Assembly (NCBI RefSeq): GCF_023147505.1
Contig: NZ_JAHXPB010000001.1
Span: 310,001 to 374,000, forward strand
Direction of reading: 5' to 3'
Length of the DNA: 64,000 nt
From: Brevundimonas sp. EYE_349
GTDB lineage: Bacteria; Pseudomonadota; Alphaproteobacteria; Caulobacterales; Caulobacteraceae
Part shown: in pieces, positions 1 to 12,198 of the stretch
How the letters are laid out: every line of letters begins with the position of its first letter
Numbering within the stretch: the stretch's first letter is position 1
Translations under genes and position numbers: made by a program
Notes under the pieces: generated by a model
The model's database searches: none
Told to the model about the DNA's origin: nothing
Seen by the model: only the letters and a program-made list of their open reading frames with translations

Positions 1-768
1 GCCATGACCTATCTGGCCGATCCGCGACGCAACATCTCCATTGTCCGAAACAAGGGCATCGCCGCCTCGCAAGGCCGCTATATCGCCTTCATAGACGACG
101 ACGAAGAGCCTCAATCCGGCTGGCTGGCGGCCCTGACGACCTGTCTGGACCGCACCGGCGCCGATGCCGCCTTTGGCCCCAAACTGCCAGAGTTCGAGGG
201 CGGACGCGCGCCGGATTGGGACCCCGCTGGTTGGCGCTATACGCTCGATTTCCAGATGCCGGCGGACGAGCAGATCCATATGTTCGGTCGGCTGCGCAAA
301 CGCGGCAAGGGCCTGGGCAGCGGCAATGCGGCCTTCCGGGTCGCAACCTGCCTGGAGGGGGCAGAGCCGTTCAGCGTGGCGTTCGGCGACGCCAATGGCG
401 AAGACACCCAGCTGCTCTTTCGTTTGGCGATGGCGGGGCGGCGCTTCGTATGGTGTCCCGACGCCGTGGTTCGGGAGTTCATCGAGACCAGCCGCGCGCG
501 GCCGGACTATATGATCACGCGCATGAAGCGCGGCTCGCAGCACTATGCCGTGTGCCGGATCGATACGAGCGACAACAAACTCCTGACCAAGGCCAAGGTG
601 GCCCTGCTCGGCCTGGCGCAGACGACGGTGCACGCCGGCCTCTATGTCGCCGCGGGCGAGTTTCTGGATCGCAAGCAGCGCTACGATCACCGGATCGGCA
701 TGGCCAAGGGCCTGGGCAAGCTGACCTGGCGCGCCCCTATCGGCTTCATCGCGGAGAAATCGGCGTGA
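1..768 (+). CDS. family 2 glycosyltransferase, 5' end cut by window
   Basis: This is the C-terminal part of a GT-A fold, family 2 glycosyltransferase that would transfer a nucleotide-activated sugar, probably at the cytoplasmic membrane. The visible protein begins inside the nucleotide-binding half and carries the metal/sugar-nucleotide motif FIDDDEEP. Alignment by eye with the next gene, a clear paralogue, shows that about 75 N-terminal residues lie upstream of base 1; the ATG at base 4 is therefore internal. Both paralogues end in a similar tail (GLGKLTWR.P.GFI). The stop overlaps the GTG start of the next gene (GTGA at 765-768), so the two are probably co-translated. Donor and acceptor are unknown; the sugar-nucleotide genes downstream suggest a heptose-like donor, which is inference. 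Confidence 0.88.
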   Translation, partial: AMTYLADPRRNISIVRNKGIAASQGRYIAFIDDDEEPQSGWLAALTTCLDRTGADAAFGPKLPEFEGGRAPDWDPAGWRYTLDFQMPADEQIHMFGRLRKRGKGLGSGNAAFRVATCLEGAEPFSVAFGDANGEDTQLLFRLAMAGRRFVWCPDAVVREFIETSRARPDYMITRMKRGSQHYAVCRIDTSDNKLLTKAKVALLGLAQTTVHAGLYVAAGEFLDRKQRYDHRIGMAKGLGKLTWRAPIGFIAEKSA

Positions 769-1727
769 GCGAGGCGGCGCCCGACCTGACGCTAGCCATA
801 CTGACCTATGATCGGCCCGAGGGGCTGGAGGTGACGCTGCGGTCCTGTCTGGCCCAGACGAACAGCCTGGGTCTGGCGCTGGAGATCGTCGTGGTGGACA
901 ACCATCCCGGCGGGGCAGGGAAGAAGGTGGTCGAGTCGTTGGCGCCCAACTCGCTCTGGCCGATCCGCTACATTTCGGACCTGACCCGAAACATGGCCGC
1001 CGTGCGAAATCGCGGATTCAGGGAAGCGCGCGGGCGCTGGCTGGCGGTCATCGACGACGACGAGATTGCCGATCCCGACTGGACCGACGCCCTGGTCGGT
1101 GCGCTGAAAGCCACGGACGCCGACATCGCTGTGGGTCCCCGTTTCGCGGTGTTCGAGGATGGGGCGCCGCCCGCCTATGATCCCGAAGGCCGCCAGTTTG
1201 TGCGCGACCTGGGTCTGGCCGATCTGGCGGAGATCGAACTGACCGGACCGTCCGGGCGGCCGCGCTATGGCCTGGGCACCGGCAATTCCATCTTCGATGT
1301 GAAGCGGTGTTTTCCTGACGGCCAGGCCGCCATGCGCGAAGCCTTCGGCTATGCGGGCGGGGAGGACGCCGAGCTGTTCGTGCGGCTGCATCGTCAGGGG
1401 CGGCGCATCGTCTGGGCGGCGCGTGCTCGCGTCACAGAAGTGGTGTTTCGAAATCGGACGGCCATCCCCTATCGGCTCATCCGCACCCGTCGCGAAACGC
1501 AGCACTATGTCTCGATCTACGTCGATGGGGCGCGGCGCCCAGCCCTGGCGCGGGCTGAATTATTCGGAAAAGGGTTAATACAAACGGCCGTCGGCGGCGC
1601 CCTGTCCTGGCTGACGGGGGAGGACCGCTCGACCTCTCGCCTCAGGTGGCGACTGCTGACACAGCATGGATTGGGCAAGCTGACGTGGCGCCGGCCGGTG
1701 GGCTTCATCGATGAGACAATCGTCTGA
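765..1727 (+). CDS. family 2 glycosyltransferase
   Basis: A 320-residue GT2 glycosyltransferase. The N-terminus LAILTYDRPEGLEVTL is the first strand-helix of a GT-A fold, and VIDDDEIADPDW (about residue 100) is the DXD-like metal site. It is a tandem paralogue of the gene before it, sharing the RN..AVRN-G block, the QHY motif and the C-terminal GLGKLTWRRPVGF block. I chose the GTG at 765 because it overlaps the preceding stop (GTGA) and gives the family's normal N-terminus; the open frame extends further upstream but only as a shadow. About 120 bp separate it from the sugar-nucleotide genes. The pair probably acts on successive residues of one surface glycan; which glycan cannot be told. Confidence 0.88.
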   Translation: MSEAAPDLTLAILTYDRPEGLEVTLRSCLAQTNSLGLALEIVVVDNHPGGAGKKVVESLAPNSLWPIRYISDLTRNMAAVRNRGFREARGRWLAVIDDDEIADPDWTDALVGALKATDADIAVGPRFAVFEDGAPPAYDPEGRQFVRDLGLADLAEIELTGPSGRPRYGLGTGNSIFDVKRCFPDGQAAMREAFGYAGGEDAELFVRLHRQGRRIVWAARARVTEVVFRNRTAIPYRLIRTRRETQHYVSIYVDGARRPALARAELFGKGLIQTAVGGALSWLTGEDRSTSRLRWRLLTQHGLGKLTWRRPVGFIDETIV

Positions 1728-1847: not shown

Positions 1848-2603
1848 ATGCTGACCCAGGTCGATCGACCCATCGTCTCGAAGGCGCCGCCGATGCCGTT
1901 GATCGCGGGGCTGAAGCTGTTCGGAGACGGGGCCAGCCTGGCGGATTTCTCGCGCCTTCACGCGCAGGGCATGGTCACGGGATTCACGACCAATCCGACC
2001 CTGATGTTCAAGGCGGGCGTCAAGGATTACGCCGAGTTCGCGCGGCAATTGATCGCCCTGATTCCCGACATGCCGCTGTCGTTCGAAGTCTTCTCCGACG
2101 ACTTCCAAGAAATGGATCGCCAGGCGCGGGTGATCGCCAGTTGGGGCGACAATGTCTATGTGAAGATTCCGATCACCAACACCAAGGGTCAGTCCAGCCT
2201 CCCGATGGCGCGCGCTCTTGCCGCTGACGGCGTGAAGCTGAACATCACCGCCATGCTGACGCTGGAGCAGGTGGCCGAGGCGATCGAAATCCTGGCCGAC
2301 GACACGCCCGCCATACTCTCGGTCTTCGCGGGGCGGATCGCGGACACTGGCGTCGATCCTGCGCCGGTCATGCGGGCCGCCGTGGCCATGGCCGCGCGCA
2401 AGCCGCTGGCCGAAGTTTTGTGGGCCTCTACCCGCGAAGTGCTGAACGTCTTCCAGGCGGCGGAGTGCGGTTGCCACATCATCACCGCCACGCCGGACAT
2501 TCTCAAGAAGCTGGACATGGCGGGCAGGGATCTGGACGCCCTCTCGCTGGATACCGTGGCCATGTTCCGCGCCGACGCGGTGGCGGCGGGCTTCACCCTG
2601 TAA
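1848..2603 (+). CDS. transaldolase-family protein in sugar-nucleotide cluster
   Basis: A 251-residue class I aldolase of the transaldolase/fructose-6-phosphate aldolase family. These enzymes move a dihydroxyacetone unit between sugar phosphates through a lysine Schiff base; the lysine is K106 in VYVKIPIT. Other family signatures are GFTTNPTLM near the N-terminus and SVFAGRIADTG. The ATG at 1848 follows GAAGGA at a good distance; an ATG at 1806 would need a Shine-Dalgarno touching the start codon. The next gene starts 2 nt after the stop. Its position at the head of a heptose-activation gene set suggests it makes the ketose-phosphate precursor (sedoheptulose 7-phosphate or an octulose phosphate) rather than acting as the housekeeping enzyme; that role is inferred. 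Confidence 0.85.
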   Translation: MLTQVDRPIVSKAPPMPLIAGLKLFGDGASLADFSRLHAQGMVTGFTTNPTLMFKAGVKDYAEFARQLIALIPDMPLSFEVFSDDFQEMDRQARVIASWGDNVYVKIPITNTKGQSSLPMARALAADGVKLNITAMLTLEQVAEAIEILADDTPAILSVFAGRIADTGVDPAPVMRAAVAMAARKPLAEVLWASTREVLNVFQAAECGCHIITATPDILKKLDMAGRDLDALSLDTVAMFRADAVAAGFTL

Positions 2604-2605
2604 TC

Positions 2606-3163
2606 ATGTCAGGTCGTCCCGCCATATTCCTGGACCGCGACGGCGTTCTGAACGACGTGGTGTGGCGCGACGGCAAGCCGGCGTCCCCGCGCACCGTGGA
2701 CGAACTGCGGATCGCGGACGGAGCGGCCGAGGCCGTGCGAGCGCTGGGCCAGGCGGGCTATCTGACCTTCGTCGTTACCAATCAGCCCGACGTGCGACGC
2801 GGCAAGATGAGCGCCGAGGCGCTGGACGCCATCCACGCCGCCCTGGTCCGATCCGTGCCGGTGGACGAGGTCCGGGCCTGTCTGCACGACAACGCCGACC
2901 TGTGCGATTGCCGCAAGCCCAGGGCCGGGATGTTGTTGGACCTGGCGGCGCGCTGGAACATCGATCTGGCCGACAGCTGGATGGTGGGCGACATGGACCG
3001 AGACATCGCCTGCGGCCGCGCCGCCGGGTCGCGGACCGCCCTGCTGGCGCGACCTTACAACAGCCAGGCCGGGGCCGATGTGGTCGCCGCCGATCTTCAT
3101 CAGGCCGTGGCCTGGATTCTTCAAACCACGCCGGCCGATCCGGCGCCCGCCCTTCAGGACTAA
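2606..3163 (+). CDS. GmhB-like HAD sugar-bisphosphate phosphatase
   Basis: A 185-residue HAD-IIIA phosphatase of the GmhB/histidinol-phosphatase group. Motif I is FLDRDGVLND with nucleophile D10 and acid/base D12; TNQP (58-61) is motif II; KP and GDMDRDI give motifs III and IV. The zinc loop of the group is complete: C92, H94, C100, C102 followed by RKP. Known members remove the 7-phosphate from heptose 1,7-bisphosphate. In this cluster it would leave a sugar 1-phosphate for the nucleotidyltransferase. Start ATG 2606 lies 2 nt after the transaldolase stop. Anomer and chain length of the substrate cannot be read from sequence. Confidence 0.85.
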   Translation: MSGRPAIFLDRDGVLNDVVWRDGKPASPRTVDELRIADGAAEAVRALGQAGYLTFVVTNQPDVRRGKMSAEALDAIHAALVRSVPVDEVRACLHDNADLCDCRKPRAGMLLDLAARWNIDLADSWMVGDMDRDIACGRAAGSRTALLARPYNSQAGADVVAADLHQAVAWILQTTPADPAPALQD

Positions 3164-3169
3164 ACAGCC

Positions 3170-3784
3170 ATGTTCGCCGACCATTTCTTCGCCGCTGCCG
3201 AAAAGGCCATGGCCGCCATCGACCGGAACGCCGTTGAAGCCATGGCCCAGCGCCTGGCCGAGGTGCGCGAGCGCGGTGGGCGCCTGTTTCTCATCGGCGT
3301 TGGCGGCAGCGCTGGCCACGCCAGCCACGCCACCAATGACTTCCGCAAGATCTGCGGCTTTGAAGCCTATTGCCCGACCGACAATGTCTCGGAACTGACC
3401 GCCCGCATCAATGACGAGGGCTGGGAAGGCACCCTGTCGACCTGGCTGGAGACCAGCCGCCTGAAGCCCGAAGACGGCCTGCTGATCTTCTCTGTCGGCG
3501 GCGGCAGCATCGAACCGCCCGTCAGCGCCAACATCGTGCGCGCGATCCAGCTGGCCAAAACCCGCGGCTCTATGGTCACCGGCATTGTCGGCCGCAACGG
3601 CGGCTATACGGCCGAGGCCGCTGACGCCTGCGTCATCGTGCCGACGGTCGATCCGCAACTGATCACGCCGCTGGTCGAGGGTCTGGCCGCCGTGGTCTGG
3701 CACCTGCTGGTGTCCCATCCGGCCCTGGCGCTGCACAAGGGCCACTGGGAGCAGATCGCACCCGTCGCCGCTCCTGCCGCCTGA
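3170..3784 (+). CDS. GmhA-like SIS-domain phosphosugar isomerase
   Basis: A 204-residue single SIS-domain protein resembling phosphoheptose isomerase. The nucleating motif GVGGSAGHASHATNDF (about 43-58) binds the sugar phosphate, as in GmhA (GNGGSA...H.A.D), and SVGGGS follows at about 108. GmhA converts sedoheptulose 7-phosphate to D-glycero-D-manno-heptose 7-phosphate. It starts 6 nt after the phosphatase gene and ends 11 nt before the first kinase, so it belongs to the operon. GVGGS in place of the usual GNGGS is a small departure from canonical GmhA. A related isomerase acting on an octulose phosphate is an alternative. Confidence 0.84.
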   Translation: MFADHFFAAAEKAMAAIDRNAVEAMAQRLAEVRERGGRLFLIGVGGSAGHASHATNDFRKICGFEAYCPTDNVSELTARINDEGWEGTLSTWLETSRLKPEDGLLIFSVGGGSIEPPVSANIVRAIQLAKTRGSMVTGIVGRNGGYTAEAADACVIVPTVDPQLITPLVEGLAAVVWHLLVSHPALALHKGHWEQIAPVAAPAA

Positions 3785-3795
3785 GCCGTCGCCCG

Positions 3796-4803
3796 ATGAT
3801 CACAACCCGCACCCCGCTGCGCGTCACCCTGGGTGGGGGCGGCACCGATCTGGAAAGCTATTACCGCAACGACGGCGGCTTCATTTTCGGCATGGCGCTG
3901 GACAAATACATCCGTGTCGTCGCCCATCGTCCGGCCTTCGACGACCGGGTGGTGGTGTATGGCCCCCAGCCCGAGGTGTCGCCGCGCGCGACCGGGGTAC
4001 AGCATGAACTGGTGCGCGCCGCCCTGATGGCGCACGGGTTTGACGACCGGCTTGAGACTGCGTCGCTGGCCGATATCGCAGGCGGTACGGGGCTGGGGTC
4101 CTCGTCCAGCTTTCTGGTCGGCTTCCTGAACGCCCTGCACGGTCTGAAGGGCCAGAAGCCGTCGCCTCAGGCCCTGGCCGAGGAAGCCTGCGATCTGGAG
4201 ATCCGTGTCCTGAGCAAGGGCATCGGCAAGCAGGACCAGTATATGGCGGCCTTTGGCGGCCTGACCACGCTGGACATCGCGCCGGACGGTCTGGTGGTGG
4301 TCAAACGGGTCGATCTGGACGCTGAGGTCGAGGCGGCCTTCATCGAACACACCCACATCTATTACACTGGCCTGCGCCGCGACGCCGCCGTGGTTCTGGC
4401 CGATCAGCACACGGCCATGTTGTCCGAGGCCGCCCCGCGCCGCGAGACGGTCAGCGATAGTCTGGGGTTCATCAAGGATTTGGGCTACCGCATCCGGGAC
4501 GCCTGGATGGCGGGGGATCTCGACGGCTGGGGCCGTATGCTGGACGACCACTGGAGCCAGAAGAAAAAGCTGTCTGGCAAGATCAGTTGGTCCGCCGTCG
4601 ACGACCTGTATGACCATGTGAAGCGCGATATGGGCGTGACCGGCGGCAAGGTGATCGGCGCCGGCGGCGGCGGCTTCCTGATGCTTTTCCACCCCGGCGA
4701 CGGCGCTGAGCTTGAGGCCTATATGGCCAGCCATAACATGCCCCGTCTGCGCTATGGCATCGACCGAACCGGTTCGCGCCAGATGGCCGAAACGCCCCTG
4801 TAA
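3796..4803 (+). CDS. GHMP-family sugar-phosphate kinase (first of two)
   Basis: A 335-residue GHMP kinase. It shows the N-terminal RTPLRVTLGGGGTDL motif, the ATP-binding motif GGTGLGSSSSFLVGF and the C-terminal GGKVIGAGGGGFL motif. Homologues phosphorylate C-1 of heptose 7-phosphate (HddA-like) or related sugars. It is directly followed, with a 1-nt overlap (TAATG), by a second GHMP kinase of different sequence. Its central region (residues about 55-90) departs more from classical HddA than does that of the second kinase, so it may act on another sugar or anomer. The substrate is unassigned. Confidence 0.82.
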   Translation: MITTRTPLRVTLGGGGTDLESYYRNDGGFIFGMALDKYIRVVAHRPAFDDRVVVYGPQPEVSPRATGVQHELVRAALMAHGFDDRLETASLADIAGGTGLGSSSSFLVGFLNALHGLKGQKPSPQALAEEACDLEIRVLSKGIGKQDQYMAAFGGLTTLDIAPDGLVVVKRVDLDAEVEAAFIEHTHIYYTGLRRDAAVVLADQHTAMLSEAAPRRETVSDSLGFIKDLGYRIRDAWMAGDLDGWGRMLDDHWSQKKKLSGKISWSAVDDLYDHVKRDMGVTGGKVIGAGGGGFLMLFHPGDGAELEAYMASHNMPRLRYGIDRTGSRQMAETPL

Positions 4804-5861
4804 TGGTGCGTGCCGGGCAAACGCCGAACTGGGGCGTGCGGGCGCGTGCGCCGCTGCGGCTCGGCCTGGCCGGCGGCGGCACCGATCTGTCGCCCTATTG
4901 CGATCAGTTCGGCGGCGCGGTTCTGAACGCCACGATCGACCGGTTCGCCTTCGCCCACATCGATGCGAATCCCGAAGGCCGGTTGGCCTTCCGGGCGCGT
5001 GATATCGGCGTCGAGGAGGTGATGGACCCGGTCATGCCGCCAGTCGATGGGGGTGATCTGGGGCTTCACCGTGCGGTCTATCGTCACGTCGCCGAACGTT
5101 GGCTGGGCGGAGCGACGCCGCCGTTGACGGTCTCCACCACTTCGGACGCGCCGGCCGGTTCGGGTCTTGGGTCGTCGTCGGCCCTGGTCGTGGCGTTGGT
5201 CGAGGCTTTTCGGGTGGCGCTGGATTTGCCGCTCGGGCCCTATGATGTGGCGCGGCTGGCCTATCGGATCGAGCGGGTGGAACTGGGGCTGTCCGGCGGG
5301 CGACAGGACCAGTATGCAGCGGCCTTCGGCGGCGTGAATTACATCGAGTTTCTCGCCGACGAACGGGTAGTTGTGAACCCGTTGCGCGTCCGGCGCGCCT
5401 ATCTGAACGAGCTGGAATCCTCCCTCGTCGTCTGTTTCACCGGCCAGTCGCGGCGGTCCGAAACCATCATCAACGAGCAGGTTAGGGGGCTCACCGATCT
5501 GGACGCCGGCGTTCTGGACGGCATGCATCGCCTGAAACAGGACGCAACAGCGATGAAGGAGGCGGTCCTGGAAGGCGACATGCGCCGCGTCGCCCGCGTA
5601 CTGATGCGCTCGTGGGAGGCCAAGAAGATGACGGCGTCCGGCATCGCCACGCCCAAGGTCGATCAGTTGTTCGACCTGGCTCTGCGCGAGGGCGCGTGGG
5701 GGGGCAAGGTGTCCGGGGCGGGAGGCGGCGGCTTTCTGATGTTCTGCACCGACCCCGAAAACCGCTATCGGCTGACCGCAGCGCTGAACGAGGCGGGCGG
5801 TGCGGCCAGCGCCGTCAAGTTCACCCTGGACGGCGCCGAGGCCTGGAGCGTGCCGCGATGA
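4803..5861 (+). CDS. HddA-like GHMP kinase (second of two)
   Basis: A 352-residue GHMP kinase closest by eye to D-glycero-alpha-D-manno-heptose-7-phosphate kinase: RAPLRLGLAGGGTDLSPY near the start, GSGLGSSSALVVAL as the ATP loop and GGKVSGAGGGGFLMF near the C-terminus. It would form the 1,7-bisphosphate that the HAD phosphatase then trims. The ATG at 4803 overlaps the stop of the first kinase and its own stop overlaps the next ATG (ATGA at 5858-5861), so the three genes are translationally coupled. The two kinases share the GHMP motifs but are strongly diverged, which argues against a recent duplication. Confidence 0.83.
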   Translation: MVRAGQTPNWGVRARAPLRLGLAGGGTDLSPYCDQFGGAVLNATIDRFAFAHIDANPEGRLAFRARDIGVEEVMDPVMPPVDGGDLGLHRAVYRHVAERWLGGATPPLTVSTTSDAPAGSGLGSSSALVVALVEAFRVALDLPLGPYDVARLAYRIERVELGLSGGRQDQYAAAFGGVNYIEFLADERVVVNPLRVRRAYLNELESSLVVCFTGQSRRSETIINEQVRGLTDLDAGVLDGMHRLKQDATAMKEAVLEGDMRRVARVLMRSWEAKKMTASGIATPKVDQLFDLALREGAWGGKVSGAGGGGFLMFCTDPENRYRLTAALNEAGGAASAVKFTLDGAEAWSVPR

Positions 5862-6535
5862 GCGCAGGGCAGGCCGTCTTTCTGGTCGGGGGCAGAGGGT
5901 CGCGCCTTGGCGACCTGACCCTCGACACGCCCAAACCCCTGTTGCCGGTGGGGGGACGCCCCTTCATAGAACACTTGCTGGACAAGGCCGTGCGCGAGGG
6001 GTTCGACGATCTGGTCCTGTTGGCCGGCTATCGGCATGTGGCGATCAAGGCCTATGCGGGGGAATGGAGCGGCGTTCCATTGCGGCTTTCCATAGAGCCG
6101 GAGCCGCTCGATACGGCTGGCGCAGTCGCGCACGCCGTGTCGCTGTTGCGCGACGATTTTCTGCTCGTCAACGGCGACACCTGGTTTGATTTCGAGTGGT
6201 CCAGCCTGCGGCTGTCCGGCGGATTTTCCGGCCTAGTCGCCGCACGCGATGTTTCGCCGGCGGATCGCTACGAAACCCTCGACATCCGCGAGGGCCGGGT
6301 CGTCGCCATCCGCCCGCGCGCCGACCTGGCGGCCGGTGTCATCAACGGCGGCGTCTATCGTCTAAGGCGAGATGTCTTCGCCGATGTGCGCGGCCGAGCC
6401 TCGCTGGAGAAAGACACTCTGACCACCTTGTGCGCTGACGGCCTGCTCGGGGCGGAAACCAGGACCGGCGCCTTCATCGATATCGGACTGCCGCATAGTC
6501 TGAAGGCGGCGAACGACCTGTTCCCTCCAAGTTAG
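5858..6535 (+). CDS. sugar-1-phosphate nucleotidyltransferase (HddC-like)
   Basis: A 225-residue nucleotidyltransferase. The signature LVGGRGSRLGDLTLDTPKPL (residues 8-27) binds NTP and phosphate; NGDTWFDF supplies the metal Asp. Length and motif fit D-glycero-alpha-D-manno-heptose 1-phosphate guanylyltransferase (HddC) and RmlA/ManC-like short enzymes. I took the ATG at 5858, which overlaps the kinase stop (ATGA); the frame continues upstream only as a shadow. It is the last gene of the cluster and ends 16 bp before the convergent dnaE2 stop. GTP as the nucleotide is inferred from the gene company, not shown. Confidence 0.83.
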   Translation: MSAGQAVFLVGGRGSRLGDLTLDTPKPLLPVGGRPFIEHLLDKAVREGFDDLVLLAGYRHVAIKAYAGEWSGVPLRLSIEPEPLDTAGAVAHAVSLLRDDFLLVNGDTWFDFEWSSLRLSGGFSGLVAARDVSPADRYETLDIREGRVVAIRPRADLAAGVINGGVYRLRRDVFADVRGRASLEKDTLTTLCADGLLGAETRTGAFIDIGLPHSLKAANDLFPPS

Positions 6536-6551: not shown

Positions 6552-9500
6552 TCAGTGGAAATCCCGCGACCCCGGCAGGATGCGGATGTTTCGCGGGTGG
6601 CGGTGTGTGGGTTGGCGAGGCTGCTGAGGGTGAGCCACGACGTCGGCGCGGGCCAGTTGAATATTGGTCTGCCGGTCCTGCGACAGGGTTTCCAACTCGG
6701 TGGATCGATCAAAGACCTTATGGACCACGACATGGACCACATCCTCCGGGCTCTTTTCTATGACGCCCTCGACCAGCATCAGGCGCGCGGACATCACCTC
6801 GCGTCGGAACTGTTCGAACATACGCGCCCATAGGACGACATTGGTGATCCCGGTCTCGTCTTCCAGCGTCACGAAGATCGCATTGCCCTTGCCTGGTCTT
6901 TGACGCACCAGAACCACGCCGGCCACCTGAACCCGGGTTCCGCCTTTAAGGGCTTCCGCCGCCTGGCACGTCAGAACGCCTTCGGCATTGAAGGTCGGGC
7001 GCAGGATGTGCATGGGGTGCGCCTTCAGCGACAGGCGCGTGGTCTGGTAGTCGGCCGCCACATGCTCTCCCAACGACATCTGCGGCAGGCGACAATCGGG
7101 CTCGTCGCCCAGTTCTCGCGCATCGGCCGCGGCGAACAGGGGCAGGGGGGCGTCGTCTGGAAGCCGGCGGACGGCCCATAACCCCTCTCGCCGCCCCAGA
7201 TTCAAGGAGCGAAAAGCGTCCGCGTCCGCAAGCTTGCGCATCGCCGCAGTCGGCAATGCGGCGCGTCGCGCAAGGTTCTCCACGTCGCGGAAAGCCGACC
7301 CGATCCTGGCCTGAACCAAGGCTGTCGCCCAATCCTCTCTGAACCCGTCGATCTGACGCAGCCCCAAGCGCAAAGCCGGCTCGCCCGAGGTCGGCTCCAG
7401 GGCATTGTCCCAGTCGCTGAACGCCACGTCGATCGGCCGGATTTCCACGCCCCCTATCTCATGGGCTTCGCGCACGATCTGAGCCGGCGCGTAGAAGCCC
7501 ATCGGCTGGCTGTTGAGCAAGGCGCAGGCGAAGGCGGCCGGATAGCGACATTTGAGATAGGCCGAGACATAGACCAGGCGGGCGAAGGACACGGCGTGGC
7601 TTTCGGGAAATCCGTAGGAACCGAACCCCTTGATCTGATTGAAGCATCGGCGTGCGAAGTCCGCGTCGTAACCCCGCGCGATCATATTCGTGACCATCAG
7701 GCCCTCGAACCGCTCCAGATCGCCTTCGCCCTTGAACGTGCCCATGGCCTTGCGAAGACCGTTGGCCTGTTCGGGCGTGAACTGGGCGGCGACCATGGCG
7801 ATCTTCATCGCCTGTTCCTGGAAGAGCGGCACGCCCAGGGTCTTCTTGACGATGGACTCCAACTCGTCCTGCGGATGTTCGAGCCCGGGCCGGGGGTAGT
7901 CCGGTTCTTCCAATCCGGCGCGCCGCCGCAGATAGGGATGGACCATGTCGCCCTGGATCGGGCCGGGTCGGACGATCGCCACCTGGATGGCGAGGTCGTA
8001 GAATTTTTCCGGTTTCAGGCGTGGCAGCATATTGATCTGGGCGCGGCTTTCGACCTGGAACACGCCGATCGAATGCCCCTTCCGCAGCATGGCGAAGACA
8101 TCCTCCTGGTCGTCTTCGATGGTGTGCAAGGCATAGGTCTTGGCGTGGTTCGCCTGGATCAGATCGAAGGCTTTTCTGACGCAGGTCAGCATGCCGAGCG
8201 CCAGGACATCCACCTTCATGAGACCCAGGTCGTCGATGTCGTCCTTGTCCCATTCGATAAAGGTGCGGTCCGGCATGGCCCCATTGTGGATGGGCACGAT
8301 CTCGTCCAGCCGACCCCGCGTCAGGACAAAACCGCCGACATGCTGGCTGAGGTGACGGGGGAAGTTCAACAGGCGCGAGGCCATCTTCACCGCGCGCGAA
8401 ATCATTGGATTGGCGGGGTCCATGCCGGCCTGTTCGACATGAGCCTGGGTGATATCCGCGCCCCAACTGCCCCAGTGACTGGCGGCGAGACGTGCGGTCA
8501 CATCCTCGCTGAGCCCCAGAACCTTGCCGACTTCACGGATGGCGCTGCGGGGGCGGAAATGGATAACGGTGGCGGCGATGCCCGCGCGATGTCGCCCATA
8601 ATCCTGGTAAAGATACTGGATGATCTCTTCGCGCCGCTCGTGTTCGAAATCCACGTCAATGTCGGGCGGTTCGCCGCGACTGGATGACAGGAAACGTTCG
8701 AACAGAAGATCATGCTGCGCGGGGTTCACGCTGGTGATGCCCAGCACGTAACAGACGGCGGAATTGGCCGCCGACCCCCGTCCCTGACACAGGATGCCCA
8801 AGTTCTCCGCCTTCTGGACGATGCGGTGGATGGTCAGGAAATAGGGAGCGTATTCGGCCGTCTTGATGAAGGTGAGCTCCTTTTCCAGCGTCGCGCGCAC
8901 GCTTTCGGGAATGCCGTCGGGATAACGCATTCCGGCATTGCGCCACGTCAAATGACTCAACCAATCATCAGGCGTCTTGTCCGGCGGTATGGGCTCATGG
9001 GGATATTCGTATTTGAGATGCGCCTTCAGATCGAACATCACGCGCGCCAGAAAATCGGTCGTCTCAGGCACTGCGGCGGGGTAATCCCTGAACAGCCGTT
9101 TCATCTCGGAGGCGGTTTTGAGATGGCGTTCCGCATTGGCTAACAGCCGGTGGCCGGCGACCTCCAGGGTGGTGTTTTCGCGGATACAGGTCAGGACGTC
9201 CTGTAGGTCACGCTGCTCCGGCGCGTGGTACAGCACGTCATTGACCGCCAGCAGGGGAACGCCCGTGTTTCGAGCCATGGCCTGCAATCGCGCGAGGCGG
9301 CGGCGGTCATCTCCCTTTCGGAGCATGGCGGCGCCCAACCAGACCGCACCGGGCGCGCCCTGGGCGATCCGAGACAAGGTGGCCTCAAACCCCGCCAGCC
9401 GATCGGGCGGCATGACGATAAGCAGGATGTCTTCGGGAGCGGCCAGCAAATCGTGAAGACCGATTTCGCACTGGCCTTTCTTCGCGCGCCGATTTCCCAG

Positions 9501-9926
9501 CGTGAGCAACCGCGTCAGACGTCCCCATCCGGCGCGGGTTTCGGGATAGGCGAGGATGTCGGGCGCGCCGTCGCTGAAAACCAGACGCGCGCCCAGGATC
9601 AGTTTGAAGGTCTGGGCGCGCCGCCTGACCTGGTCGGATAGGGCCGGATCAATGGTGTGGTCTTCATCGACGGTGACTTCACCCGGCCCCGAGCCTTCTC
9701 GTCGAAAGTCAGGCGGAAGAAGACCATGTTCTCGCAAGGCCTTTAGCGCGCTCCAGGCGCGGACCACGCCGGCGACGGTGTTGCGATCCGCGATGCCCAT
9801 GCCGGCATGACCCCGCAGGAGCGCCGTCGCCACCATCTGTTTGGGGGATGAGGCCCCGTGAAGAAACGAGAAGTTGGTCGTCGTCGCCAGTTCGGCGTAA
9901 TCGCCAGAAGGATCAGGTTCGATCAT
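6552..9926 (-). CDS. dnaE2: error-prone DNA polymerase III alpha subunit DnaE2
   Basis: A 1124-residue C-family polymerase of the DnaE2 (ImuC) type, the catalytic member of the SOS mutasome that performs mutagenic translesion synthesis with ImuA and ImuB. The N-terminal PHP domain starts YAELATTTNFSFLHGAS. The palm carries the catalytic pair in PDIDVDFEHER. A C-terminal OB-fold segment (RVQVAGVVLVRQRPGKG onward) is present. The start ATG at 9926 overlaps the imuB stop (ATGA, 9926-9923), which excludes an in-frame GTG-type extension of eight codons. Regulation is by the LexA box in front of imuA, at the head of this three-gene operon. Confidence 0.96.
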   Translation of the reverse strand: MIEPDPSGDYAELATTTNFSFLHGASSPKQMVATALLRGHAGMGIADRNTVAGVVRAWSALKALREHGLLPPDFRREGSGPGEVTVDEDHTIDPALSDQVRRRAQTFKLILGARLVFSDGAPDILAYPETRAGWGRLTRLLTLGNRRAKKGQCEIGLHDLLAAPEDILLIVMPPDRLAGFEATLSRIAQGAPGAVWLGAAMLRKGDDRRRLARLQAMARNTGVPLLAVNDVLYHAPEQRDLQDVLTCIRENTTLEVAGHRLLANAERHLKTASEMKRLFRDYPAAVPETTDFLARVMFDLKAHLKYEYPHEPIPPDKTPDDWLSHLTWRNAGMRYPDGIPESVRATLEKELTFIKTAEYAPYFLTIHRIVQKAENLGILCQGRGSAANSAVCYVLGITSVNPAQHDLLFERFLSSSRGEPPDIDVDFEHERREEIIQYLYQDYGRHRAGIAATVIHFRPRSAIREVGKVLGLSEDVTARLAASHWGSWGADITQAHVEQAGMDPANPMISRAVKMASRLLNFPRHLSQHVGGFVLTRGRLDEIVPIHNGAMPDRTFIEWDKDDIDDLGLMKVDVLALGMLTCVRKAFDLIQANHAKTYALHTIEDDQEDVFAMLRKGHSIGVFQVESRAQINMLPRLKPEKFYDLAIQVAIVRPGPIQGDMVHPYLRRRAGLEEPDYPRPGLEHPQDELESIVKKTLGVPLFQEQAMKIAMVAAQFTPEQANGLRKAMGTFKGEGDLERFEGLMVTNMIARGYDADFARRCFNQIKGFGSYGFPESHAVSFARLVYVSAYLKCRYPAAFACALLNSQPMGFYAPAQIVREAHEIGGVEIRPIDVAFSDWDNALEPTSGEPALRLGLRQIDGFREDWATALVQARIGSAFRDVENLARRAALPTAAMRKLADADAFRSLNLGRREGLWAVRRLPDDAPLPLFAAADARELGDEPDCRLPQMSLGEHVAADYQTTRLSLKAHPMHILRPTFNAEGVLTCQAAEALKGGTRVQVAGVVLVRQRPGKGNAIFVTLEDETGITNVVLWARMFEQFRREVMSARLMLVEGVIEKSPEDVVHVVVHKVFDRSTELETLSQDRQTNIQLARADVVAHPQQPRQPTHRHPRNIRILPGSRDFH

Positions 9927-11482
9927 GCGAACAGGCCATGGATGAACCAACGTTGCTGTTCATCGACGCCGTATTCGCCTTGACGAAACAGCCAGAAACG
10001 GCGGCCGTCCGTGTCCTCCACGCGATAGTAGTCGCGGGTGCGCTGTCCCGGCGCACGCCACCATTCTCCAGCGATCCGCTCCGGCCCTTCGGCGCGTGTG
10101 ACCTGGTGCAGAACGCGACGCCAGCGGAACTTCAACGGATGACCGTCGGGCACTTCGGCCAGGGTCTCGATCGGCTGAGGCGGATCGAACAGCTGCAAGG
10201 GGCGCAAGGGCGGATCGTCCGGGTCCAGGTCAGGCCAGTCGCCGTCGCCGGACCGGGCCGAGGCCTGAACCCGTCGCGAGGCGCGTTCTGGAATATGGGA
10301 CGCGAACGGCTCGAACCGGATCACCGCCTCGGGACCCAGCCGGGCGGTGAGTTGATCCACCAGCAGGCTGAGGGACTCTTCGCCCGGCGCGTCCTCCTCT
10401 AGTCCCTGCTGAGTCGGTGTCAGGACCTGCGTCCACACGACCGTCATCCGCGTCTGATCGAACCCGAATCCGGGATCCAGCGGATTGGGCAAGGCCGCGA
10501 TCCGTTCCTGAAACAACCTCAGGATCGCCTTTTCATCCCGTGTCGGTCGCCCCGTGCGCACGACAATGCGCCGCACCGCGCCATCCACGCGATAGAAGCC
10601 CGCCTCGAAGGCGCGGCCGCCCAGGCTGATCTGGTCCAACTGGGTCATGGTCTCGATCAGCAGGTCGGACAGGATGCGGTCGATATCCTCCAGAGTCGTG
10701 ATCGGCTCGAAGAAAACCCGGTCGACAACCACGGGAGCGGGGGGACGATGAGGGACGATGCGAATGTCCTCTTCACCCAGGATGCGCGCCAATCGGTTCG
10801 GGAACCCGACGCCAAATCGCGCGGCCAAGGGCGCGCTCGCCCGGTCGTCCAGATCGCCCAGTCGCTTCAAGCCCAAGCGGCGCAAAGCCACCTCGTCCTT
10901 GTCGGGCAGTTCCAGCGCGGCGACCGGCAAACGGCGGACAGCCTGGCGATCCTGCCCCGGTTCGAACAGGCCGCCGGGACCGAAGCGAACAAGCGCGCGC
11001 GCGGCCTGCGGCGTTGCAGCCAGGGCGCACCGGGTCTGAAGGCCGAAGTGCTCGCCGCGAGCTTGGACTGCGTGCAGCAGCCCCTTTTCGTCGCCGAACA
11101 GATGCGCGCAGCCGGTTGCGTCCAGGATCAGGCCATCCGCAGGATCAAGCGCGATCATGGGGGTGAAGCGGTCGAAATCCTCCAGAACCTGTTCGAGAAA
11201 GGCGGCATCAGCATCCGCCAAATGCGGGACGACACGCAGATCCGGCGTGCGTGCGCGGGCGTCGGCCAGGCTCAGTCCAGGCGTCAGCCCCACTCGTGCG
11301 GCCGATGGATCGACAGCGGCCAGCCTCAGTGCGCCCTTGACCTTTTCCGTCAGAACCAAGGGCGAGGTATGGTCAGGCGGCGTATCGTCTTTCGCCTCCT
11401 GGCGCAGCAGTCGGTCGCTGGCCAGCCAAGGAAACCAGACCGCCAGGTAACGGCGGGGGCGGCTGAAATGATCTCTGCTCAC
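9923..11482 (-). CDS. imuB: ImuB, Y-family polymerase-like mutasome subunit
   Basis: A 519-residue Y-family-related protein. ImuB has lost polymerase activity and acts as the scaffold that ties DnaE2 and ImuA to the beta clamp. The N-terminus RRYLAVWFPWLASDRL is typical. The palm acidic residues of active Y-family enzymes are not evident, as expected for ImuB. PLRPLQLFDPP at about residues 420-430 fits a beta-clamp-binding motif of the QxxLxLF type. The start at 11482 lies 110 nt inside imuA; no later start would keep the conserved N-terminus, so the long overlap appears real. The stop overlaps the dnaE2 start. Confidence 0.93.
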   Translation of the reverse strand: MSRDHFSRPRRYLAVWFPWLASDRLLRQEAKDDTPPDHTSPLVLTEKVKGALRLAAVDPSAARVGLTPGLSLADARARTPDLRVVPHLADADAAFLEQVLEDFDRFTPMIALDPADGLILDATGCAHLFGDEKGLLHAVQARGEHFGLQTRCALAATPQAARALVRFGPGGLFEPGQDRQAVRRLPVAALELPDKDEVALRRLGLKRLGDLDDRASAPLAARFGVGFPNRLARILGEEDIRIVPHRPPAPVVVDRVFFEPITTLEDIDRILSDLLIETMTQLDQISLGGRAFEAGFYRVDGAVRRIVVRTGRPTRDEKAILRLFQERIAALPNPLDPGFGFDQTRMTVVWTQVLTPTQQGLEEDAPGEESLSLLVDQLTARLGPEAVIRFEPFASHIPERASRRVQASARSGDGDWPDLDPDDPPLRPLQLFDPPQPIETLAEVPDGHPLKFRWRRVLHQVTRAEGPERIAGEWWRAPGQRTRDYYRVEDTDGRRFWLFRQGEYGVDEQQRWFIHGLFA

Positions 11483-12161
11483 GATCCCACTCCACGATGC
11501 TTGTTCCTGTCTGCCCGCCGCCCCGCCGCCGCAGCAGGGTCACGGAAAAAGACGGACGGCCCGGCGCTCCGCCTTCCAGGGGGACCGAGGCCGATGAGGC
11601 CACAGACCATCGGCTTTCGGCGGCGCTGGGGCAGGGCGCGGCGGCGGCGCGCGCCAGAAACAGTGTTCCCCCTCCGGTTTCAGCCGCCAGCGCCAGACGT
11701 CGGCTGGCCGTCATGCTGAAAGCCTTCGCTTCGCCCCAGGCGCTCAACACCACCGCGCCCACGGCGAGACAGCGCAAAGCCTCTTCACCCACGGCCAGCA
11801 GGGTGTGCACGTCGCGAGTCCGCACCAGCAGAATGTCACGGGCCGACAGGCCCATTTCATGCAGGCCACGCCCGTAAGGGCGCCCCGTCTCTTGCGCCAT
11901 CATGTCGTGCATGCCCCACAGGATCGGCCGATCCCCCCTGATGGTCTGGGCCATCCCCAATCCGAAAGCGTTGAGAGCCACGGCGTCCGCTGGCGTCGCG
12001 GCATAGAGGTCATGCACGACCCCTGGGATCAAAGGCGCAAGAGGGGTGTCACATATCCCGCGCGCGCCGATGGCGACCCGACGATCACCAAGCCGCTCAA
12101 GCCTTTCCAGCCGAGCCTTCAAAGCCGCCAAGGCGTCAGGTTGCGAACAAATGTTCCTCAT
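11373..12161 (-). CDS. imuA: ImuA, RecA-like mutasome subunit
   Basis: A 262-residue SulA/RecA-like protein, first gene of the imuA-imuB-dnaE2 cassette; ImuA helps the mutasome work at damaged DNA. Recognisable parts are the RecA-like region around ILWGMHDMMAQETGRPYG and DILLVRTRD. The C-terminal GTSIVEWDREQRSF block matches the usual ImuA ending, after which a Pro-rich tail runs into imuB. I set the start at ATG 12161; it sits inside the spacer of the LexA box and has no Shine-Dalgarno, which suggests a leaderless mRNA. An in-frame TTG at 12179 is the alternative. Overlap with imuB is 110 nt. Confidence 0.86.
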   Translation of the reverse strand: MRNICSQPDALAALKARLERLERLGDRRVAIGARGICDTPLAPLIPGVVHDLYAATPADAVALNAFGLGMAQTIRGDRPILWGMHDMMAQETGRPYGRGLHEMGLSARDILLVRTRDVHTLLAVGEEALRCLAVGAVVLSAWGEAKAFSMTASRRLALAAETGGGTLFLARAAAAPCPSAAESRWSVASSASVPLEGGAPGRPSFSVTLLRRRGGGQTGTSIVEWDREQRSFQPPPPLPGGLVSLAGQRPTAAPGGERRYAA

Positions 12162-12167
12162 TTGTTC
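12153..12167 (-). promoter_or_regulatory. LexA (SOS) box GTTC-N7-GTTC
   Basis: The sequence GTTCCTCATTTGTTC on the plus strand matches the alphaproteobacterial LexA consensus GTTC-N7-GTTC exactly. Read on the imuA strand it is GAAC-AAATGAG-GAAC, with the proposed imuA ATG inside the 7-nt spacer. LexA bound here would cover the transcription start and start codon. Confidence 0.88.
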
Positions 12168-12169
12168 TA

Positions 12170-12198
12170 GAAAGCCCAAAACCTCTAACCAGAGTCAA
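12170..12198 (-). promoter_or_regulatory. candidate imuA promoter
   Basis: On the minus strand TTGACT (12198-12193) is followed after 17 nt by GCTTTC (12175-12170). The -35 is near consensus; the -10 is weak but begins with the GCT seen in Caulobacter housekeeping promoters. Transcription would start at about 12164-12161, at or beside the proposed ATG, agreeing with a leaderless message repressed by the overlapping LexA box. Confidence 0.4.

What the first reader, a model, noticed from the sequence alone, without database searches (positions are those of the whole stretch)
1848..6535. Sugar-nucleotide operon with its own transaldolase, matching the enzyme set for GDP-heptose or GDP-octose
Seen: one coupled plus-strand run encodes a transaldolase-family enzyme, GmhB-like phosphatase, GmhA-like isomerase, two GHMP kinases and a HddC-like nucleotidyltransferase, next to two GT2 glycosyltransferases. 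Known: GDP-D-glycero-alpha-D-manno-heptose needs GmhA, HddA, GmhB and HddC, starting from sedoheptulose 7-phosphate; the lincosamide octose pathway (LmbR transaldolase, LmbN isomerase, LmbP kinase, LmbK phosphatase, LmbO guanylyltransferase) uses the same five classes to make an eight-carbon GDP sugar. Inference: this cluster makes its own long-chain ketose phosphate and activates it, possibly a heptose or octose for a surface glycan not described in Caulobacterales.
Basis: partly seen in the sequence, partly recalled or inferred. Interest (0 to 1): 0.72.

Follow-up and report, generated by a model that had tools for sequence, protein, structure and literature searches.

The report
Octose-sugar operon beside a polysaccharide locus
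Next to a polysaccharide-export locus, this Brevundimonas-like bacterium carries a compact operon with its own second transaldolase that is predicted to build an activated eight-carbon sugar by the route known from the antibiotic lincomycin, likely as a building block of a surface polysaccharide.

Summary
Six intact plus-strand genes (1848-6535) encode a transaldolase (TAL), a GmhB-like phosphatase, a phosphosugar isomerase, two GHMP kinases and an HddC-type nucleotidyltransferase. They end a polysaccharide-export locus that recurs in 18 relatives. The housekeeping TAL is a different subfamily on another contig.

With the isomerase as sole bait, 42 of 43 well-flanked homologous loci carry a transaldolase within 6 kb. 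Of 26 HddC- or HddA-type loci, none does in the stretches fetched. In other phyla the module is often extended by an epimerase, a Gfo/Idh enzyme and a nucleotide-sugar dehydrogenase without its catalytic cysteine.

The deciding comparison is with five Streptomyces-like clusters in lincosamide gene order. Their LmbN-type isomerases form a clade with this one (99/92) and share a loop insertion (80/85 module, 5/5 LmbN-type, 0/32 GmhA-like). Their dehydrogenases lack the same cysteine.

I therefore favour an octose over a heptose. Against it: the TAL is not orthologous to the LmbR-type, overall profile scores barely separate LmbN-type from GmhA-like, and the operon carries an HddA/HddC pair of heptose lineage. 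GDP-heptose, or both sugars, is not excluded. The product is inferred; no chemistry was tested.

The parts
1..768 (+). GT2 glycosyltransferase 1 (gene starts about 180 bp upstream of the window)
   Evidence: PF00535; full gene at L004:12818-13768; 40-95% identical copies in 19 related loci, 18 of them distinct
765..1727 (+). GT2 glycosyltransferase 2 (GTG start, overlaps the previous stop)
   Evidence: PF00535; start checked
1848..2603 (+). dedicated transaldolase, predicted to make the long-chain ketose phosphate
   Evidence: TIGR02134 314.8 bits, cut-off 281.95; Asp/Asn/Glu/Lys/Phe active-site pattern kept; separate clade from the housekeeping TAL
2606..3163 (+). GmhB-like HAD-IIIA phosphatase, predicted to remove the terminal phosphate
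   Evidence: TIGR01656 119.7 bits, cut-off 84.15
3170..3784 (+). SIS-domain ketose/aldose phosphate isomerase, in one clade with LmbN-type (lincosamide octulose 8-phosphate isomerase type) enzymes
   Evidence: PF13580; gmhA only 48.9 bits, cut-off 209.45; clade with LmbN-type 99/92; shared loop insertion; GmhA-like fold
3796..4803 (+). GHMP kinase 1 (module kinase), predicted to phosphorylate C1
   Evidence: PF00288/PF08544; groups with the kinases of the other modules, 31 rows at 91/87
4803..5861 (+). GHMP kinase 2, HddA (heptose 7-phosphate kinase) lineage
   Evidence: NF049969 339.3 bits, cut-off 600; 100/100 with the kinases of two complete heptose loci, L157 and L160
5858..6535 (+). nucleotidyltransferase of HddC lineage, predicted to add GMP
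   Evidence: NF049965 117 bits, cut-off 300; 98/92 with HddC-type enzymes

Best explanation
The operon is predicted to make a GDP-activated eight-carbon sugar (an octose) from scratch and likely feeds it into the adjacent polysaccharide. Shown by sequence: a second, non-housekeeping transaldolase sits in one run with an isomerase of the LmbN-type clade, a phosphatase, two kinases and a nucleotidyltransferase, at the end of a polysaccharide-export locus. Inferred: the transaldolase moves a three-carbon unit from fructose 6-phosphate to ribose 5-phosphate, giving an octulose 8-phosphate. The isomerase turns this into an aldo-octose 8-phosphate, GHMP kinase 1 phosphorylates C1, the HAD enzyme removes the 8-phosphate, and the HddC-type enzyme makes the GDP-octose. 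The HddA-lineage kinase with the HddC-type enzyme may in addition make GDP-heptose. The two GT2 enzymes would place the sugar in the repeat unit.
For: Dedicated TAL: two PF00923 genes; the window TAL falls in the TIGR02134 clade, far from the housekeeping copy; TIGR02134 is over its cut-off in only 3 of 299 genomes of the order and 6 of 398 of the phylum, 5 of those 6 beside the module isomerase. Transaldolase belongs to the pathway: of 80 isomerase loci, 43 have at least 4 kb on each side; of these, 42 have a TAL within 6 kb (40 of this subfamily, 2 of the other), HAD 42, kinase 41, nucleotidyltransferase 41; three Myxococcales loci use the other TAL subfamily in the same place. Controls: 0 of 13 HddC-type loci and 0 of 13 HddA-type loci of order genomes lacking this TAL have a TAL in the stretches fetched. 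C8 over C7: isomerase clade with LmbN-type 99/92; shared loop insertion 80/85, 5/5, 0/32 and TPxxE 84/85, 5/5, 1/32. Reference clusters: the 5 best isomerase hits among 392 genomes of a Streptomyces-like genus lie in HAD-NDPDH-SDR-SIS-Gfo-GHMP-NTP-gap-TAL clusters; L228, the one checked further, continues with PmbA/TldD, glycosyltransferase and mycothiol-isomerase genes, the row order lmbK to lmbV of Table 2 in PMC4351081. LmbR/LmbN chemistry: passages of PMC5854111 and PMC4351081. Extended relatives share the Cys-to-Thr dehydrogenase with these clusters. Surface glycan: the export locus (Poly_export, Wzy_C, WecG, Bac_transf, two GT2) recurs in 18 distinct related loci.
Against: The window TAL is not orthologous to the LmbR-type TALs, which belong with the other short-TAL subfamily. 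Overall profile scores barely separate LmbN-type from GmhA-like (window 96.9 vs 88.6 bits; 66 of 85 module isomerases score higher with LmbN-type). Five of 85 module isomerases miss the loop pattern, which was written after seeing the alignment. Kinase 2 and the nucleotidyltransferase are of heptose lineage. Kinase 1 is not octose-specific: the kinases of 6 of the 8 HddC-type loci in the tree fall on its side (37 rows, 100/100). The module nucleotidyltransferases form at least two separate groups. The window lacks the extra nucleotidyltransferase found between TAL and HAD in several relatives and lacks the epimerase/dehydrogenase/Gfo genes. Stand-alone TALs of the same clade exist in Treponema, lactobacilli and on a Streptomyces plasmid. 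No enzyme or glycan was assayed.
Confidence: 0.6

Rival explanations
1. The operon makes GDP-heptose only: the transaldolase tops up sedoheptulose 7-phosphate, the isomerase acts as the missing GmhA, HddA/HddC and the phosphatase finish GDP-D-glycero-manno-heptose, and kinase 1 is redundant or makes the other anomer.
For: Kinase 2 and the nucleotidyltransferase group with HddA and HddC. No canonical GmhA was found: the only SIS_2 gene of the genome is this one, and 0 of 61 relatives pass the gmhA cut-off. HddA-type kinases at 50% identity or more occur in 11 of 13 module-bearing genomes that I chose, 7 of 9 if the four with the pair already seen in their locus are left out, against 13 of 296 order genomes without this TAL.
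Against: 0 of 26 HddC/HddA-type loci have a transaldolase in the stretches fetched. The 13 HddA-type loci of order genomes without this TAL show no SIS isomerase within the stretches either (not searched genome-wide). The isomerase shares the LmbN-type loop and clade. L056 and L057 have the module while their genomes show no HddA-type kinase above 34% identity.
Confidence: 0.2
2. Two sugars: TAL, isomerase, phosphatase and kinase 1 make an octose 1-phosphate while HddA/HddC make GDP-heptose from a shared isomerase, so the polysaccharide holds both.
For: Relatives carry seven genes with two nucleotidyltransferases and two kinases (L043, L044, L048, L049, L051); in G211 the module and the HddA/HddC pair are on different contigs.
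Against: The window has only one of the two nucleotidyltransferases, so one enzyme would have to serve both sugars or use a partner elsewhere.
Confidence: 0.15
3. The transaldolase is an ordinary pentose-phosphate enzyme that happens to lie here.
For: Stand-alone enzymes of the same clade occur elsewhere and NCBIfam names the family simply transaldolase.
Against: A housekeeping TAL exists; 42 of 43 isomerase loci keep a TAL, with non-orthologous replacement in Myxococcales.
Confidence: 0.05

Closest known systems
Lincosamide octose pathway (LmbR, LmbN, LmbP, LmbK, LmbO; then LmbM, LmbL, LmbZ, LmbS)
   Same: Same five enzyme classes; isomerase in one clade with LmbN-type, with the same loop insertion. 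Relatives in other phyla add LmbM/L/Z-class enzymes, including the Cys-less dehydrogenase.
   Different: TAL from another short-TAL subfamily; no LmbM/L/Z/S classes in the window; nucleotidyltransferase of HddC lineage; linked to polysaccharide export and not to an antibiotic.
GDP-D-glycero-alpha-D-manno-heptose pathway (GmhA, HddA, GmhB, HddC)
   Same: Kinase 2 and nucleotidyltransferase of HddA and HddC lineage; HAD phosphatase of GmhB type.
   Different: An added transaldolase (0 of 26 comparison loci have one); isomerase outside the GmhA-like groups; an added second kinase.
ADP-L-glycero-D-manno-heptose pathway (HldE, HldD)
   Same: Also encoded in this genome, about 20 kb upstream, with KdsA.
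   Different: Different kinase and nucleotidyltransferase families; no transaldolase in it (recalled).
Stand-alone TIGR02134-clade transaldolases
   Same: Same clade and the same active-site residues in the three stand-alone members checked.
   Different: Those seen here in lactobacilli lie beside PTS genes, not sugar-nucleotide genes.

Membership tests
Lincosamide-type octose pathway | Isomerase of the LmbN-type clade | tested here: met
   99/92 clade of 17 rows (12 module, 5 LmbN-type) against 36 GmhA-like rows, four of them duplicates; loop insertion 80/85 and 5/5 vs 0/32
Lincosamide-type octose pathway | Dedicated transaldolase in the cluster | tested here: met
Lincosamide-type octose pathway | Transaldolase orthologous to LmbR | tested here: not met
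   LmbR-type rows fall with the FSA/TalC-type group; the window TAL does not
Lincosamide-type octose pathway | GHMP kinase, HAD phosphatase and nucleotidyltransferase in the cluster | tested here: met
   the nucleotidyltransferase is of HddC lineage
Lincosamide-type octose pathway | Downstream epimerase, Cys-less dehydrogenase, Gfo/Idh (LmbM, L, Z classes) | tested here: not met
   None within the 33 kb scanned around the window cluster; present in Verrucomicrobia, Lawsonia and Rhizobium relatives
Lincosamide-type octose pathway | C8 product | not testable with these tools
   Needs an enzyme assay
GDP-heptose pathway | HddA and HddC lineage enzymes | tested here: met
   Trees; both below the curated cut-offs
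GDP-heptose pathway | Canonical GmhA isomerase | tested here: not met
   48.9 bits vs cut-off 209.45; outside the GmhA-like groups
GDP-heptose pathway | Uses sedoheptulose 7-phosphate from the general pool (no TAL of its own) | tested here: not met
   0 of 26 comparison loci show a TAL, this one does
TIGR02134 transaldolase | Score over the curated cut-off and transaldolase residues | tested here: met
   314.8 vs 281.95 bits; residues (their meaning for TAL against FSA activity is recalled)

The most novel reading that the evidence does not exclude
The octose route known from lincosamide antibiotics is a widespread surface-sugar pathway found in at least eight phyla, from Verrucomicrobia to the pig pathogen Lawsonia. 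Here it makes a GDP-octose for a Caulobacterales polysaccharide. In its nine-gene form it yields an oxidised and rearranged octose, and the antibiotic pathway was assembled from the same stock.
Probability: 0.5. Interest if true: 0.82.

Novelty: new variant of a known kind. Interest (0 to 1): 0.68.

Why it matters
Eight-carbon aldoses made by transaldolase are, to my knowledge, known only from lincosamide antibiotics. Six full-text searches pairing transaldolase, octose, heptose or lincosamide with polysaccharide terms found no report of such a route for a surface glycan. One of them listed PMC10072801, which counts 'several octoses' among E. coli K-antigen sugars (two passages read) without naming them there; I take these for Kdo-type sugars made another way. 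If the module does what its isomerase clade suggests, a new class of surface sugar is encoded across at least eight phyla. Many isomerases that sources name sedoheptulose 7-phosphate isomerase would be misnamed, and the origin of the lincomycin sugar becomes testable. The core enzymes are few and small, so a direct in vitro test is within easy reach.

Tried and rejected
Chance clustering or an artefact: rejected.

TAL as the genome's only or housekeeping copy: rejected.

Fructose-6-phosphate aldolase: disfavoured, since the window has Glu and Phe where FSA has Gln and Tyr (residue meaning recalled). The LmbR-type rows themselves have Gln and Leu there.

Isomerase as an ordinary GmhA: disfavoured, although plain profile scores differ little.

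Led nowhere: PDB searches named no lincosamide octose enzyme among the rows shown; protein-database searches listed only the best 120 rows, near relatives; Rfam on the window gave four tRNAs; the TAL on a Streptomyces plasmid sits without the module; a test of which genus G739 belongs to did not settle it.

Limits. The 80 isomerase loci are the best of 138, rich in Verrucomicrobia MAGs and not independent; L038 and L046 are the same locus. All 13 HddC-type control loci score 148-239 bits, below that model's cut-off of 300; only 4 of them show a SIS isomerase, only L157 and L160 the whole heptose set, some are short contigs, and one of these genomes (G449) holds the module on another contig. 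The stand-alone TAL of G502 lies 0.4 kb from a contig end, so its neighbours are half unseen. Trees 69, 71, 72, 101, 103 and 106 use chosen subsets of rows. In the tree the module and LmbN-type clade lies inside a wider group with 13 other rows, most of them Streptomyces GmhA-like, and several rows have long branches. The clade test printed left out two module rows (L125, L126) by mistake and says nothing about the clade shown; I disregard it. Genome G1145 is unnamed; its lincosamide nature is read from gene content and order, and Pfam found no carrier-protein domain in the N-terminal part of its isomerase ORF, although LmbN has one. That G833 is a Streptomyces was assumed from chaplin genes, not shown.
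Full report
Observation. The six genes are intact, on one strand and nearly contiguous. Family matches: TAL_FSA with TIGR02134 over its cut-off; HAD-IIIA/GmhB-like; SIS_2 with a weak gmhA match; two GHMP kinases; NTP_transferase with HddC as best model. Of the NCBIfam equivalog models matched by these six proteins, only TIGR02134 is passed; the heptose models all stay below their cut-offs.

Setting. The window lies at C1:310001-374000 of a 3.44-Mb genome; the nearest named relatives are Brevundimonas. Upstream are a Wzc-like protein (GNVR and Wzz matches just under their Pfam cut-offs), a Poly_export (Wza) protein, a 419-aa protein without a family match that I read by eye as a Wzx-like flippase, a Wzy_C protein, a WecG/TagA-family transferase, a Bac_transf sugar transferase and two GT2 enzymes. 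At least two of these genes recur upstream of the module in 19 of 84 loci searched, 18 of them distinct and all alphaproteobacterial. KdsA, HldE and HldD lie about 20 kb upstream.

A transaldolase of its own. The genome has a second TAL on another contig. The tree of 82 rows puts the window TAL in a 68-row clade (99/95) with the module TALs and the stand-alone TIGR02134-type enzymes, apart from the housekeeping rows. TIGR02134 over its cut-off is rare: 3 of 299 order genomes (282 of 299 have some match, presumably from housekeeping TALs) and 6 of 398 phylum genomes. Of these six, G000, G042, G611, G600 and G449 have the module isomerase next door; in G502 none is seen, but its TAL lies 0.4 kb from a contig end.

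Conserved module. The isomerase was used as the only bait. Of 138 relatives found, 80 loci were kept. Of those, 43 have at least 4 kb on both sides; within 6 kb of the isomerase, 42 have HAD, 41 kinase 1, 41 a nucleotidyltransferase and 42 a TAL, two of them of the other short-TAL subfamily. L103 is the one without. L066 is a third locus with the other subfamily, on a short contig. Gene sets: TAL-NTP-HAD-SIS-kinase in Parvibaculaceae, Acidisphaera and some Caulobacteraceae; the same plus an HddA/HddC pair in L043, L044, L048, L049 and L051; the window form without the first NTP in several Brevundimonas and Caulobacter; L042 and L046 without any NTP in the locus. Ten of the 43 loci, and the Lawsonia and Rhizobium jaguaris plasmid loci, add a GalE-like epimerase, a nucleotide-sugar dehydrogenase, an SDR and a Gfo/Idh enzyme. 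Phyla with isomerase plus TAL: Pseudomonadota, Verrucomicrobiota, Myxococcota, Acidobacteriota, Bdellovibrionota, Vulcanimicrobiota, Actinomycetota (labels) and Thermodesulfobacteriota.

Controls. Thirteen HddC-type loci from 299 phylum genomes (148-239 bits, all below the cut-off) have no TAL of either subfamily in the stretches fetched. Four of them show a SIS isomerase, and L157 and L160 hold the whole heptose set; one genome, G449, has a module on another contig. HddA-type kinases occur in 16 of 299 order genomes: the three with the TAL, and 13 others. The stretches around the 13 others show HddA, often with NTP and HAD, and neither a TAL nor a SIS isomerase. In G211 the module is on C95 and the HddA/HddC pair on C98. 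Among 13 module-bearing genomes that I chose, 11 have an HddA-type kinase at 50% identity or more and 2 only at 32-34%; four of the 11 were known beforehand to have it next to the module. So the pair and the module are separable but tend to co-occur.

Which sugar. A search of 392 genomes of one Streptomyces-like genus with the isomerase alignment gave 112 genomes with a match. The five best matches all lie in the order HAD, dehydrogenase, epimerase, isomerase, Gfo/Idh, kinase, NTP, gap of 1.2 kb, TAL; L226 has about 5 kb more between Gfo/Idh and kinase. In L228 the gap is an aminotransferase, and PmbA/TldD, glycosyltransferase, mycothiol-isomerase and ABC-F genes follow. This is the row order lmbK, L, M, N, Z, P, O, S, R, Q, T, V in Table 2 of PMC4351081 (passages read), where LmbN is the C8 isomerase and LmbR the transaldolase. 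A passage of PMC5854111 states that LmbR uses fructose 6-phosphate or sedoheptulose 7-phosphate as donor and ribose 5-phosphate as acceptor. The five next-ranked isomerase loci (L232-L236) score higher with the GmhA profile and have no TAL in their stretches.

Isomerase evidence. In the tree of 53 rows, 12 module rows (of 85 in hand) and 5 LmbN-type rows form a clade of 17 (99/92) against 36 GmhA-like rows. Both groups replace the SGxS phosphosugar loop by FSVxGG plus an insertion: 80 of 85 module, 5 of 5 LmbN-type, 0 of 32 GmhA-like; TPxxE before the last helix: 84 of 85, 5 of 5, 1 of 32. Overall similarity separates them less: the window scores 96.9 bits with an LmbN-type profile and 88.6 with a GmhA-like one, and 66 of 85 module rows prefer LmbN-type. 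The predicted structure (mean pLDDT 88) has the GmhA fold, TM-score about 0.7.

Dehydrogenase evidence from relatives. The catalytic cysteine of UDP-glucose dehydrogenases is threonine in 10 of 10 module enzymes sampled and 5 of 5 lincosamide-type enzymes; it is cysteine in 5 of 6 others, and asparagine in L164, which lies near a module. Without that cysteine the enzyme would stop at a two-electron oxidation (inference from the known mechanism), as expected for a secondary alcohol in a chain longer than six carbons. This fits C7 as well as C8.

What differs from lincosamide. The TAL rows of the lincosamide-type clusters fall with the other short-TAL subfamily and have Gln and Leu where the module TALs have Glu and Phe. 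The two routes therefore share the isomerase and, in the long form, the modifying enzymes, but recruited different transaldolases. The window lacks the modifying enzymes, so its product would be the unmodified octose.

Heptose branch and exchangeable parts. Kinase 2 groups 100/100 with the kinases of the two complete heptose loci. Kinase 1 groups with the module kinases (31 rows, 91/87), but the kinases of six other HddC-type loci are next to that group (37 rows together, 100/100), so kinase 1 by itself does not mark an octose. The nucleotidyltransferase groups with HddC-type enzymes (98/92). The one that relatives carry between TAL and HAD is a separate group of six, and the module nucleotidyltransferases of other phyla are a third group of 17. 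No canonical GmhA was found: 0 of 61 relatives (37 of the genus, own genome included, and 24 of the order) pass the gmhA cut-off, though G305 has a 103-bit match. The module isomerase could therefore also serve a heptose route, and I keep both-sugars and heptose-only as rivals.

Verdict. A new variant of a known kind: an octose-type sugar-nucleotide module built from shared parts, attached to a polysaccharide locus. The step from sequence to C8 product is inferred and rests mainly on the isomerase and on the conserved transaldolase.

Noticed in passing
L003:4789-7274 (about 20 kb upstream of the window): HldE and HldD (ADP-heptose route) are present, but no canonical GmhA was found in this genome, nor over cut-off in any of 61 relatives; how heptose 7-phosphate is made in this order is unclear.
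   Followed up: partly
L128:11947-20298 (Lawsonia intracellularis plasmid): A complete extended octose-like gene set on the plasmid of a pig pathogen, annotated piecemeal as SIS protein, transaldolase, galactokinase and others.
   Followed up: partly
L067:3157-4461 and relatives: A cross-phylum group of UDP-glucose-dehydrogenase-like enzymes with threonine in place of the catalytic cysteine, linked to the module.
   Followed up: yes
window 6552-12179, minus strand: A DNA polymerase III alpha-type (DnaE2-like) gene and an ImuB-type (IMS family) gene, with a third minus-strand ORF that may be ImuA-like, follow the operon in convergent orientation: it looks like the usual SOS mutagenesis cassette.
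   Followed up: partly
L166:2986-6317 and L167:2980-6292: Transaldolases of the same clade on Lactobacillaceae plasmids sit behind a LacI regulator and before PTS genes, a catabolic setting unlike the module.
   Followed up: no
L066, L082, L118 (Myxococcales): The module's TAL is replaced by an enzyme of the other short-TAL subfamily at the same place, a non-orthologous replacement.
   Followed up: yes
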